From positions 124,001 through 188,000 of the forward strand of contig NZ_KE340381.1 in NCBI RefSeq assembly GCF_000413935.1: a stretch of DNA of 64,000 nucleotides, written 5' to 3'. Positions 58,118 to 61,349 of this stretch are shown in pieces. The DNA comes from Acinetobacter colistiniresistens. Lineage in GTDB: Bacteria > Pseudomonadota > Gammaproteobacteria > Pseudomonadales > Moraxellaceae. Position 1 is the stretch's first letter; every line of letters starts with the position of its first letter. The translations under genes were made by a program, and so were the position numbers. A model generated the notes under the pieces. That model was not told the origin of the DNA. It saw nothing but the letters and a program-made list of their open reading frames with translations, and searched no databases.

Positions 58118-58642
58118 ATGATCAAAGCATTTCCAGCATTTATACAAAGATTAAAAGCCCGCTTTATTTCCAGCTTAATCTTTTATCTCAAAATGAATCA
58201 ATTCCAATATCGTGGTTTGACGTCTGGTGAAATCGAAATGGCGTGTCGCGTCTTTGGTCATTTAATTGATTATACAAAAGTCAAAATCTTTAACATCCCC
58301 TACTTACCTTGGCAACCTGTCAATATTTTTATGGCACCGAATGGCAACCTGTTCGTTCATCAAAAATATTTCAGTTCGGACTACTCAACCTGCTCCCTCT
58401 CCTTGCAAGGAATTTTTATTCACGAACTGGCGCATGTTTTACAGTTTCAACAACACACACATGTGATTGTCAAAGGTGCAATCCTTCAGGCAGGCTATTA
58501 CCTCAGCTTTAAACAATATAACCCTTATCAATATCACTTGATCCAAGGTAAAGCGTTTTCTAGTTATAACATTGAGCAGCAGGGTGATATTGCACGCGAT
58601 ATTTTTTTGAACAGGATTCCCAATATTATCCTCAAAAACTAA
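58118..58642 (+). CDS. Small HExxH protein (vgr-related-like)
   Basis: A 174-aa protein with the zinc-peptidase motif HELAH (His102, Glu103, His106) in GIFIHELAHVLQFQQH. A hydrophobic stretch near 17-26 is short. The layout, GEIEMACRVFGHLIDYTKVKI then an HExxH helix, is like small proteins often linked to Rhs/Vgr elements. A third metal ligand is not obvious. Protease activity is not certain. Confidence 0.72.
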   Translation: MIKAFPAFIQRLKARFISSLIFYLKMNQFQYRGLTSGEIEMACRVFGHLIDYTKVKIFNIPYLPWQPVNIFMAPNGNLFVHQKYFSSDYSTCSLSLQGIFIHELAHVLQFQQHTHVIVKGAILQAGYYLSFKQYNPYQYHLIQGKAFSSYNIEQQGDIARDIFLNRIPNIILKN

Positions 58643-58675
58643 AAAGCCCCGTAATTTATATTTACAGGGCTTTTT
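58641..58675 (+). terminator. Terminator after the HExxH gene
   Basis: AAAAAGCCC pairs with GGGCTTTTT (58641-58649, 58667-58675). Confidence 0.8.
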
Positions 58676-58698
58676 AAGTAAGTAATTCACACTGGAAC

Positions 58699-58860
58699 TT
58701 ATGCAGCAGTGCCTTTACCCGTTTCAATTGGGTGTTCATGACTATCATCCATATCAGTCGTAAATTCTACACGCATCGCATCCTTAACAATGGTTCCTAT
58801 ACGCCCAACACCAATAGCTAAACCCAAGGCGATTACAGGCAATAAAATCGTTGAAGTCAT
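58699..58860 (-). CDS. Small membrane protein, tandem paralogue A
   Basis: A 53-aa ORF, MTSTILLPVIALGLAIGVGR then a soluble acidic tail. GAGG lies 9 nt before ATG. One hydrophobic helix with a Gly-rich core (residues 5-24) shares LLPVIA-GLA--VGR-GT with the next two genes. It is the third in a tandem array and has an extra 20-residue C-terminal tail. Function unknown. Confidence 0.75.
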   Translation of the reverse strand: MTSTILLPVIALGLAIGVGRIGTIVKDAMRVEFTTDMDDSHEHPIETGKGTAA

Positions 58861-58903
58861 AATTTCGTACCTCTTTATTTAAATGACTATTTAACAAATC
58901 AGC

Positions 58904-59002
58904 TTAAGCTTGCTGGTCTTGCTCACGGAACATGACTGTACCAATACGACCAACAACCACTGCTAAACCAAACGCAACCACAGGAAATAATAAAACTGAC
59001 AT
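58904..59002 (-). CDS. Small membrane protein, tandem paralogue B
   Basis: A 32-aa ORF, MSVLLFPVVAFGLAVVVGR plus a short polar tail ending EQDQQA. It has GAGGTAAAGAAG before ATG. Nearly identical to paralogue C. It is probably a single-span inner-membrane protein. Confidence 0.78.
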   Translation of the reverse strand: MSVLLFPVVAFGLAVVVGRIGTVMFREQDQQA

Positions 59003-59045
59003 CTTCTTTACCTCATCAATCCATACATCAAAATTGAATGATCAA

Positions 59046-59144
59046 TTAAACTTGTTGATCTTTTTCTTGGAACATTACGGTGCCTACACGGCCAACGACA
59101 ACAGCCAATCCAAAAGCAATCACAGGAAATAATAAAACTGACAT
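59046..59144 (-). CDS. Small membrane protein, tandem paralogue C
   Basis: A 32-aa ORF, MSVLLFPVIAFGLAVVVGR plus a tail ending EKDQQV. AGAGGTAACAATA precedes ATG. It is the first gene of the array. Spacers of 43 bp separate it from B and B from A. Three intact frames with proper ribosome sites make it very unlikely that these are chance. Confidence 0.78.
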   Translation of the reverse strand: MSVLLFPVIAFGLAVVVGRVGTVMFQEKDQQV

Positions 59145-59723
59145 TATTGTTACCTCTTTATTTTCGTGTTTGAGTACACTGGATCTACATCAAAGTGTAC
59201 GCTTGTTCACATTAATTAGGATAATAGCAGTGCACAAATGTGCACTCAAGTGTCGTAAAGATATTCCCGACAAACGGTATAAAAAACACTCAAATCATAT
59301 ATAAACCCATGAATACGCTATATTTTTAAAAAAGTACAAGTGTTTCACTCATTCCCATACAATAAAAAATATAGAAAGTGATTATTTTTTCTCAAGTTTT
59401 TGTAATATCCACAACTGTTGTAATCGATACGTCATACCCAGATGTAAAAATGGTATGAAAAAAACTTGCTATGATGCTATTCAATTTATTCACAATTACG
59501 CACCATAATCACGCAAATATTGAGAAATGTTGCTGTTTTATACAGAAAAACTTGTTATTTTTACGCAGAAAAATGCGCATTTAGTATATATTAGTAAACT
59601 TGTCATTTTTCTTTAAGATATAAAATGTTTGGCGCCATGATATACACTTGTTTTTAATAACTATACCCATATAAATCAGAAACTTGTATATCAGAACTTG
59701 TTAAAACTCAGGACTAGGTTTGA
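59145..59723. other. Divergent region, small-ORF array / nadE
   Basis: A 579-bp AT-rich gap. Its left end holds the promoter with the palindrome. The nadE side carries five copies of ACTTGT (59550, 59598, 59646, 59682, 59696) and one inverted copy at 59336. No gene or firm nadE promoter is visible. Confidence 0.55.
59221..59249 (-). promoter_or_regulatory. Promoter with palindromic operator upstream of the small-ORF array
   Basis: On the minus strand TTGAGT (59249-59244), 17 bp and TATTAT (59226-59221) make a good promoter about 77 bp before the first small gene. The spacer holds AGTGCACAAATGTGCACT (59229-59246), a perfect palindrome with 7-bp arms, placed where a repressor would block RNA polymerase. 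Confidence 0.6.
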
Positions 59724-61349
59724 ATGAAAAATTTTAAAGTTGCCCTTGCTCAATTCTCTCCGCACATTGGCAATATTGATGCAAATACTCAAAAGATGGT
59801 TGAGCAAGCAAATTTAGCGAAACAACAACAGGCTGATTTGATCATCTTCCCAGAGCTTTCTACGATAGGTTATCCTGCTGAAGACTTATTACTTCGCCCA
59901 AATCTACAAAAACGCACTCAAAAAGCGTTTGCTCAACTCAGCGAAGTCAAAGATATCCTCATGGTGTTCGGTTTTGTGCACCAAACTGAGGACGGTCATC
60001 GCTATAACTCTGCCGCAGTAATGAAAGACGGGCAGGTTTTAGGGGTTTATAACAAACACAACTTGCCTAACTATGGCGTGTTTGATGAAAAGCGTTACTT
60101 CCAAGAAGGCCATCAACACCTTGTGTTTGAATATTTAGGTCACAAGTTCGGTGTGCTAATTTGCGAAGATGTCTGGTCATTGAATACTGTCAAACAACTC
60201 AGTCAACTGAATGTTGAAACGGTACTGGTCTTAAATGCTTCACCTTATGAAGTAGGTAAACCGCAACATCGTATCCAGACCTTAAATGAACTGGCAAAAC
60301 AGTTGAATCTCAATCTGATCTACGTCAACCAAGTCGGTGGACAAGATGATTTGATTTTTGATGGTTCAAGTTTTGTCAGCAATCATGATGGTCAATTGGC
60401 ATTACAAATTCCAAGCTTCCAAGAAGCTTTGGCTTATGCTGAATACGATACTGAGCAAAAGCAATACAAAACAACTGATTCGATTCCAGCCTTAGAAACT
60501 TTTGCTGAAATTTACCAAGCGCTGGTCATGGCAACACGTGATTATGTACAGCGCTCAGGTTTCCCTGGTGTGATTCTAGGCTTATCTGGTGGGATCGACT
60601 CTGCTTTGACCCTAGCCATTGCAGTTGATGCAATTGGTGCTGAGAAAGTCCAAGCCGTGATGATGCCATATACCTACACCTCACAAATGAGTGTCGAAGA
60701 TGCGACTCAACAAGCCCGTCGCATGGGCGTGACTTTTGGTATTGCAGAAATTCACCCGATCGTGAATAGCTTCATGCAAACCTTGTTCCCATTCTTTGGT
60801 AACTCGCCTGCTGATGCGACAGAAGAAAACTTACAAGCGCGTACTCGCGGTACTTTATTGATGGGTTTATCGAATAAGTTTGGTAACCTCGTGCTTTCTA
60901 CTGGCAACAAGTCTGAAATCTCAGTAGGTTATTGCACCTTGTATGGTGACATGGTCGGTGGTTTCTCTGTACTCAAAGATGTGTATAAAACCATTGTATT
61001 TGAACTGGCAAAATACCGTAATACGCTAGAAGAAACGCCTGTAATTCCAGAGCGTGTGATTACACGTCCGCCATCGGCAGAACTTCGTCCAGATCAAAAA
61101 GACCAAGATTCCCTACCTGCGTATGATGTACTTGATGCCATCTTATATGCTTATATTGAGGAAGATCTCAGCCAAGCAGACATTATCGCCAAAGGCTACG
61201 AAGCCGAAGTGGTCGAGAAAGTCATTCGCCTGGTTGATCGTAATGAATACAAGCGTCGTCAGGGCGCGATTGGGCCACGTATTAGTTCGCGTGCCTTCAG
61301 TCGCGAACGACGCTATCCTATCGTCAACGGATGGACCGCGAATGACTGA
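59724..61349 (+). CDS. nadE: Glutamine-dependent NAD+ synthase
   Basis: NadE amidates nicotinic acid adenine dinucleotide to NAD+. The 541-aa protein joins an N-terminal nitrilase-type glutaminase (Glu44 in FPELS, Lys111 in YNKHNLPN, Cys147 in LICEDVW) and a C-terminal synthetase with the ATP loop LSGGIDSALT near 287-296. Glutaminase and synthetase in one chain is the usual form for this length. It overlaps the next gene by 8 bp. Confidence 0.95.
   Translation: MKNFKVALAQFSPHIGNIDANTQKMVEQANLAKQQQADLIIFPELSTIGYPAEDLLLRPNLQKRTQKAFAQLSEVKDILMVFGFVHQTEDGHRYNSAAVMKDGQVLGVYNKHNLPNYGVFDEKRYFQEGHQHLVFEYLGHKFGVLICEDVWSLNTVKQLSQLNVETVLVLNASPYEVGKPQHRIQTLNELAKQLNLNLIYVNQVGGQDDLIFDGSSFVSNHDGQLALQIPSFQEALAYAEYDTEQKQYKTTDSIPALETFAEIYQALVMATRDYVQRSGFPGVILGLSGGIDSALTLAIAVDAIGAEKVQAVMMPYTYTSQMSVEDATQQARRMGVTFGIAEIHPIVNSFMQTLFPFFGNSPADATEENLQARTRGTLLMGLSNKFGNLVLSTGNKSEISVGYCTLYGDMVGGFSVLKDVYKTIVFELAKYRNTLEETPVIPERVITRPPSAELRPDQKDQDSLPAYDVLDAILYAYIEEDLSQADIIAKGYEAEVVEKVIRLVDRNEYKRRQGAIGPRISSRAFSRERRYPIVNGWTAND

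What the first reader, a model, noticed from the sequence alone, without database searches (positions are those of the whole stretch)
58699..59144. Three tandem small membrane-protein genes
Three paralogous ORFs of 32, 32 and 53 codons lie in a row on the minus strand. Each has a GAGG ribosome site and shares the hydrophobic core LLxPVxAxGLAxxVGRxGT. The two spacers are both 43 bp. The tails differ (EKDQQV, EQDQQA, and a 20-residue acidic tail), which fits repeated duplication and selection for the helix. Standard gene callers usually miss them. They may be membrane-bending, transporter-modulating or stress peptides.
Basis: partly seen in the sequence, partly recalled or inferred. Interest (0 to 1): 0.72.

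Follow-up and report, generated by a model that had tools for sequence, protein, structure and literature searches.

The report
Lipid-regulated tiny membrane protein operon
Three tiny neighbouring genes in an Acinetobacter genome encode similar single-helix proteins, predicted to sit in the membrane, that evolution preserves strongly, and their promoter carries the same switch sequence as fatty-acid desaturase genes, which suggests that they help the membrane adjust when its lipids become too saturated.

Summary
The three ORFs are real genes. Coordinates, GAGG sites, 43-bp spacers and the shared core check out. Among the eight closest of 28 related loci, s1 has 16 variable columns, 15 at third codon positions; pN/pS is 0.011 (s1), 0.037 (s2), 0.32 (s3). 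They form a likely operon between nadE and a putative metalloprotease gene. Arrays of 2-5 copies were read at this place in 28 of 149 sampled genus genomes, plus one relocated copy. Relatives sharing A-x3-A-x3-GR-x-GT lie at a second locus (16 read) and in Alkanindiges. The main finding is the promoter: two palindromes, AGTGNACANNTGTNCACT, one over the -35/spacer and one just past the -10. The exact pattern occurs three times in the genome (reversed control none). All 29 loci classified from a genus-wide scan fall at four places, one being the promoter shared by a DesT/FabR-type TetR regulator and a fatty-acid desaturase operon. All 29 arrays keep at least one box; none of 16 second-locus stretches does. 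I read this as a DesT-type-repressed operon of single-span inner-membrane microproteins in the lipid-unsaturation regulon. Regulator binding, partner and action are inferred, not shown.

The parts
59046..59144 (-). s1: 32-aa single-helix microprotein gene MSVLLFPVIAFGLAVVVGRVGTVMFQEKDQQV
   Evidence: ORF; 15 of 16 variable columns at third codon positions, pN/pS 0.011; AlphaFold helix 5-31, mean pLDDT 86.5
58904..59002 (-). s2: 32-aa paralogue, 84% identical to s1
   Evidence: pN/pS 0.037
58699..58860 (-). s3: 53-aa paralogue with acidic C-terminal tail
   Evidence: helix pN/pS 0.16, tail 0.55
59229..59246 (.). Box 1: AGTGCACATTTGTGCACT (minus strand), perfect 18-bp palindrome, exact match to the DesT-type box; overlaps the -35 and spacer
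   Evidence: present at <=2 mismatches in 28 of 29 arrays, all but L022
59194..59211 (.). Box 2: TGTGAACAAGCGTACACT (minus strand), second DesT-type box, 2 mismatches, 35 bp from box 1, just downstream of the -10
   Evidence: present at <=2 mismatches in 27 of 29 arrays, all but L012 and L018
59221..59249 (-). sigma-70-type promoter: TTGAGT (59249-59244), 17-bp spacer, TATTAT (59226-59221) with TG before it
   Evidence: a consensus scan: 3 sites found against 6.1 in shuffles, so the scan alone proves nothing; the case rests on the footprint
59264..59281 (-). conserved upstream element TATACCGTTTGTCGGGAA, only copy in the genome at up to 1 mismatch, role unknown
58639..58677 (-). likely intrinsic terminator after s3 (16-pair stem, T run)
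   Evidence: 1 found against 0.7 in shuffles

Best explanation
s1-s2-s3 is one operon of single-span inner-membrane microproteins that belongs to the Acinetobacter DesT/FabR-type regulon of membrane-lipid unsaturation. When unsaturated acyl-CoA is plentiful the TetR-family repressor encoded beside the desaturase operon should sit on two boxes flanking the -10 and keep the operon off; when saturated acyl-CoA builds up (rigid membrane, cold, exogenous saturated fat) it should let go, and the desaturase and the microproteins should be made together. The peptides should insert with a very short N-terminus outside and the Arg/C-terminal tail inside. Their invariant A10-x3-A14-x3-G18-x3-T22 face is a small-residue helix-packing surface by which they most likely bind each other or a polytopic lipid-related membrane protein, tuning membrane state; s3 adds a cytosolic acidic tail. 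Shown here: genes, conservation, operon layout, boxes, their co-occurrence with the desaturase promoter. Inferred: DesT binding, direction of control, topology, partner and action.
For: Codon-level selection. Exact box AGTGNACANNTGTNCACT: 3 places in own genome, reversed control 0; 97 of 149 genus genomes have it, control 0 in every row. One search returned 30 loci, one per genome; the 29 from other genomes (L130-L158) all lie at four places: desT/desaturase operon (9), xthA-arsC gap (12), an unknown 260-aa protein (5), the small-gene promoter (3). 29 of 29 arrays (L001-L029) carry at least one box <=2 mismatches within 111 bp of the first start, including one relocated beside RNase PH with two perfect boxes. 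Regulator: PDB DesT 3lsj E 1.4e-29, FabR model 136 bits, divergent from FA_desaturase PF00487. P. aeruginosa DesT represses desCB and responds to acyl-CoAs (PMC10634369, passages). Invariant A10, A14, V16, G18, R19, G21, T22 in 17 chosen sequences.
Against: No expression, binding or localisation data. The desT-like protein scores under the FabR curated cut-off (136 against 151), and a second FabR-type regulator (186 bits, over it) sits beside another desaturase module; it could be the one that binds, though no box (<=4 mismatches) lies in the 7 kb around it. Box 2 has 2 mismatches in the window, and 3 of 29 arrays show only one box. One own-genome site with 1 mismatch (C7:54395) has no lipid-related neighbour that I recognise. 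A desT-type relative is found in 146 of 149 genomes at E<=1e-25 (14 of these at only 34-41% identity) but arrays were seen in 29, and at least six genomes where no array was seen (G037, G047, G074, G079, G109, G124) have desT and the desaturase beside a box, so desaturation does not need the peptides. Second-locus stretches lack the box (0 of 16 at <=2 mismatches) and carry another palindrome, so the DesT link is not a property of the whole family. The xthA-arsC and 260-aa sites show that the box is not confined to desaturase genes.
Confidence: 0.6

Rival explanations
1. The peptides are small modulatory subunits (CydX- or AcrZ-like) of one polytopic inner-membrane enzyme or transporter unrelated to lipids; the DesT-type box only times their expression.
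For: Single short helix with an invariant small-residue face, as in partner-binding microproteins (recalled); the second-locus relative is under a different box.
Against: No partner gene is linked: neighbours at the array are nadE (divergent) and a putative metalloprotease (convergent). The regulatory link found is to lipid desaturation. Two to five copies suggest a need for bulk amounts.
Confidence: 0.25
2. A type I toxin-antitoxin array (like Ldr, Ibs or Hok): small hydrophobic toxins in tandem repeats held down by antisense RNA.
For: Size, hydrophobicity and tandem repetition resemble Ldr/Ibs (recalled, not tested by alignment).
Against: No plus-strand promoter-like site in 58500-59750 (consensus scan only); ribosome sites before all listed copies; one direction, one likely terminator; the same chromosomal neighbourhood in 28 genomes; s1 peptide without match on 72,556 plasmid records; a lipid-type operator.
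Confidence: 0.06
3. The operator belongs to the second FabR-type regulator (C6:202545) or another TetR protein and the operon answers a different lipid signal.
For: That paralogue scores higher against the FabR model (186 bits, over the cut-off) and lies beside a second reductase-desaturase pair (ORF reading).
Against: No AGTGNACANNTGTNCACT box with up to 4 mismatches in its 7-kb neighbourhood, whereas the desT-type gene has three boxes (0, 1 and 2 mismatches) in its own divergent promoter region.
Confidence: 0.15

Closest known systems
Pseudomonas aeruginosa DesT regulon (desCB, fabAB)
   Same: TetR regulator related to DesT (3lsj, E 1.4e-29) divergent from a reductase-desaturase operon, with palindromic boxes in the shared promoter
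   Different: Here the same box also lies before an operon of 30-56-aa microproteins, a CsrB-like RNA region and an unknown 260-aa protein; none is named as a target in the DesT passages I read (12 of 18 places)
CydX / AcrZ type small membrane subunits
   Same: Small single-helix proteins conserved over a genus or family (works like; class features recalled)
   Different: No sequence match to solved small subunits, no linked partner, tandem copies
Ldr / Ibs / Hok type I toxins
   Same: Tandem small hydrophobic peptides (recalled)
   Different: No antisense promoter seen in a consensus scan, operon-like layout, lipid-type operator, strong purifying selection

Membership tests
DesT/FabR regulon (lipid unsaturation) | Regulator is a DesT/FabR-type TetR protein beside a desaturase operon | tested here: met
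   3lsj DesT E 1.4e-29; FabR model 136 bits but under cut-off 151; FA_desaturase PF00487 97 bits
DesT/FabR regulon (lipid unsaturation) | Same palindromic operator at the target promoter and at the desaturase promoter | tested here: met
DesT/FabR regulon (lipid unsaturation) | Regulator binds and represses the promoter in response to acyl-CoA | not testable with these tools
   needs binding and expression data
DesT/FabR regulon (lipid unsaturation) | Operator equals the published Pseudomonas DesT box | not tested
   The published box is only recalled; the 2010 DesT paper is not held
Single-span regulatory membrane microproteins | Under 60 aa, one hydrophobic helix, purifying selection | tested here: met
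Single-span regulatory membrane microproteins | Binds a larger membrane protein and changes its activity | not testable with these tools
   no partner identified
Type I toxin-antitoxin | Antisense RNA promoter opposite the toxin gene | tested here: not met
   no plus-strand promoter-like site in 58500-59750; a consensus scan only
Known Pfam, NCBIfam or PHROG family | Match over the curated cut-off (PHROGs: E<=0.001) | tested here: not met
   for s1-s3; others (three; four) for second-locus relatives

The most novel reading that the evidence does not exclude
Acinetobacter makes, under the same acyl-CoA-sensing switch as its desaturase, multi-copy helical microproteins that themselves adjust the membrane: a protein arm of homeoviscous adaptation acting beside the lipid arm, from a Moraxellaceae family whose copies have been placed under two different regulators, a DesT type at the tandem array and perhaps a GntR type at the second locus.
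Probability: 0.2. Interest if true: 0.78.

Novelty: new variant of a known kind. Interest (0 to 1): 0.56.

Why it matters
Small membrane proteins often have no functional clue. Here a family without a Pfam, NCBIfam or PHROG model, present in 117 of 149 sampled genus genomes, gets one: a conserved operator shared with fatty-acid desaturation. That makes a direct test possible (desT deletion, saturated or unsaturated fatty acid feeding) and would extend lipid-unsaturation control from enzymes to microproteins.

Tried and rejected
Named families: Pfam, NCBIfam and PHROGs gave nothing over cut-off for s1-s3. PDB sequence search with the 17-row alignment gave only chance hits (best E 1.2). Plasmid tblastn with s1 gave no match. 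Rfam on the window gave six sub-threshold hits around the terminator. Search of 194 genomes of the order (own included) with A1 gave no convincing hit outside the genus (best 0.0038); later found three relatives outside it (two Alkanindiges, one Moraxellaceae MAG), so the family is not genus-restricted. Antisense or toxin reading: disfavoured for lack of a plus-strand promoter-like site and by the operon layout. NadE link: disfavoured because the array is transcribed away from nadE with its own footprint and one copy set lies beside RNase PH. Literature: five of the eight paper searches used looked for small membrane or small proteins, or desaturase/DesT regulation, in Acinetobacter; among the papers listed I noticed none on this family, but the lists are capped and the library is open-licence only. 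I did not test whether public annotations already call these ORFs.

Full report
OBSERVATION. The window lies in an Acinetobacter-type genome (G000:C8:124001-188000; the 28 titled records are Acinetobacter, Alkanindiges or a Moraxellaceae MAG). The three minus-strand ORFs are at the stated places, with GAGG 8-9 bases before each ATG and two 43-bp spacers. Comparing the eight closest of the 28 array loci (L001-L008), nearly all differences in s1 and s2 fall on third codon positions and pN/pS over 28 pairs is 0.011, 0.037 and 0.318 for s1, s2 and s3 (pairs share history and are not independent). In s3 the helix is at 0.16 and the tail at 0.55. The s1-s2 spacer varies at 24 of 43 columns. This pattern is that of translated, selected genes.

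OPERON. Upstream of s1 there is a sigma-70-type promoter, TTGAGT-17-TATTAT with a TG extension, and downstream of s3 a terminator-like stem at 58677-58639. The scan found 3 promoter-like sites against 6.1 in shuffles and 1 terminator against 0.7, so the scan itself is no proof; the promoter block is supported by its conservation. No plus-strand promoter-like site was found in 58500-59750. The array sits between nadE (NAD+ synthase) and a 174-aa protein with HELAHVLQ (no family over cut-off).

FAMILY. A search of 149 genus genomes with a 14-row alignment finds relatives in 117 at E<=1e-5. Tandem arrays at the nadE locus were read in 28 loci from 28 genomes (L001-L028): 2 to 5 genes by the motif count; nadE found in 27 of 28 (in L022 the contig begins 300 bases before the first gene) and the 174-aa neighbour in 28 of 28. 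Other genomes were not all read, so 28 is a minimum. The motif count can miss diverged members (for example the second gene in L097, GGRLIT, and perhaps a third gene in L021). In L009 copies 1 and 2 are identical with identical spacers, and copies 1 and 3 differ by 12 synonymous changes and no replacement. One genome (G031) has its copy between RNase PH and an ORF that I read as argA.

SECOND LOCUS. Sixteen further stretches were read because they held a family match (L031, L033-L044, L046, L047, L049). In 15 of 16 the one or two family genes lie between a 127-138-aa ORF like YgfX and a lipoprotein-like ORF followed by a rhomboid-like ORF; in L042 the gene lies after the acyl-CoA dehydrogenase gene and the YgfX-like ORF is elsewhere in the stretch (ORF reading). 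Profiles were run on single examples: YgfX in L031 matches Pfam Cpta_toxin at 22.1 bits, under its 27.3 cut-off; the rhomboid in L031 is rhombosortase TIGR03902, 143 bits over cut-off 84; an SdhE-like ORF in L033 scores 49 bits, under the 120 cut-off. Alkanindiges (two species) and one Moraxellaceae MAG have a single s3-like gene downstream of a YgfX-like and a roughly 200-aa ORF; in the MAG (L186) an SdhE-like ORF precedes them (ORF reading). So the second locus is probably the older home and the nadE-side array a derived expansion (inference from distribution).

PROTEIN. AlphaFold gives one helix, residues 5-31, mean pLDDT 86.5, pTM 0.43. Invariant in 17 chosen sequences: A10, A14, V16, G18, R19, G21, T22. 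A10, A14, G18 and T22 are four residues apart and so lie on one helix face, a small-residue packing face. There is no charge before the helix in s1-s3 and an Arg after its hydrophobic part, which by the positive-inside rule (recalled) suggests N-out, C-in. This is inference.

OPERATOR. Aligning the upstream regions of 29 arrays shows a strongly conserved block containing two palindromes 35 bp apart. The pattern AGTGNACANNTGTNCACT without mismatch occurs at three places in the own genome, at six with up to one mismatch (two of the six in the desaturase promoter); the reversed pattern never. The one-mismatch site at C7:54395, upstream of a prmA-like ORF, is unexplained. In 149 genus genomes, 97 have an exact match and the reversed control is 0 in all rows. 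One search returned 30 loci, one per genome; the own-genome one is the xthA-arsC site, and of the other 29 (L130-L158), 9 lie between desT and the reductase-desaturase genes, 12 between xthA and arsC, 5 beside the gene for an unknown 260-aa protein, 3 at the small-gene promoter. Further sites in the same genomes were not classified. Among arrays L001-L029, 29 of 29 have at least one box with <=2 mismatches within 111 bp of the first start; box 1 is present in 28 (not L022), box 2 in 27 (not L012, L018). In 25 titled records (L159-L183) each has a box, 24 of them upstream of the first ORF that the script took; in L173 the script took an ORF starting upstream of the box. Second-locus stretches: 0 of 16 with <=2 mismatches; L044 has one with 3.

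REGULATOR. The 216-aa TetR protein at C11 has three boxes (0, 1, 2 mismatches; the last overlaps the 5' end of the longest reductase ORF) in its divergent promoter with the reductase and desaturase. It matches PDB DesT 3lsj (E 1.4e-29) and the FabR model at 136 bits, under its 151 cut-off. A relative at E<=1e-25 is present in 146 of 149 genomes, in 14 of them at only 34-41% identity, which may be another paralogue. A second FabR-type protein (C6:202545, 186 bits, over cut-off) lies beside another reductase-desaturase pair, with no such box within 7 kb. I therefore assign the boxes to the C11 protein, with the paralogue as rival. In P. aeruginosa, DesT represses desCB; saturated acyl-CoAs weaken and unsaturated ones strengthen its binding (PMC10634369, passages). 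A desT homologue in an operon with desB has been noted in an A. baumannii strain (PMC11448061, passages). PMC8319022 and PMC11481535 (passages) gave no box sequence.

SECOND REGULATOR. Second-locus promoters (15 of the 16 aligned; L036 left out) carry another palindrome, ATTGTYNGACAAT (also in Alkanindiges). In the own genome it occurs at four sites, control 0: two at the second locus, one before a GntR-FCD regulator gene and one before an apolipoprotein- or phasin-like 198-aa protein (apolipoprotein model 45 bits, under its 90 cut-off). I took the query genes from these four sites; of 22 loci from other genomes, 9 fall at the same three genes, 3 lie beside a shared 293-307-aa ORF, and 10 were not assigned. 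In one search, 75 of 79 genomes have a match and the reversed control has matches in a minority. This is much weaker than the DesT-type box, and the GntR link is a guess from its own promoter.

READING. Best supported: a DesT-type-repressed operon of single-span inner-membrane microproteins, made together with the desaturase when the lipid pool is too saturated. What they do in the membrane is not shown. I favour packing against each other or against a polytopic lipid-related protein, because of the invariant small-residue face and the pressure for several near-identical copies. The desaturase does not need them: at least six genomes where no array was seen have desT and the desaturase beside a box.

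COMPARISON. They may work like known small membrane modulators, but no sequence family matches. They are not filed as type I toxins. I call it a new variant of a known kind: a microprotein family without a model in the three libraries searched, in a regulatory setting that I did not find described in the searches listed.

Noticed in passing
L092:3303-3573 (G000:C5, between xthA and arsC); also L130, L131, L133, L142, L145, L146, L148, L154, L156-L158: A conserved region with many GGA motifs, a GCATTATAG -10-like sequence and a terminator looks like a CsrB/RsmB-type RNA (Rfam CsrB 17.1 bits, under its gathering score of 71, E 0.01; alignment of 11 loci). A DesT-type box sits at the xthA stop upstream of it, which might tie lipid state to Csr control.
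   Followed up: partly
L095:3542-4501 (G000:C11): An unknown 260-aa protein with no Pfam or NCBIfam match has a DesT-type box upstream (1 mismatch here, exact in 5 relatives).
   Followed up: partly
L031, L191, L192 (G000:C5, C6, C8): A candidate GntR-FCD regulon with box ATTGTYNGACAAT: the regulator's own promoter, the second-locus microproteins and an apolipoprotein- or phasin-like protein.
   Followed up: partly
window 59264-59281: A conserved 18-bp element TATACCGTTYGTCGGGAA upstream of the s1 promoter, unique in the genome at up to 1 mismatch, no known binder.
   Followed up: partly
window 58118-58642: A 174-aa ORF with HELAHVLQFQQH, metalloprotease-like, beside the array in 28 of 28 loci, no family over cut-off.
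   Followed up: no
L227:3037-6049 and L093:1395-4560: Two paralogous modules of TetR regulator, ferredoxin-type reductase and fatty-acid desaturase in one genome, apparently with different operators.
   Followed up: partly
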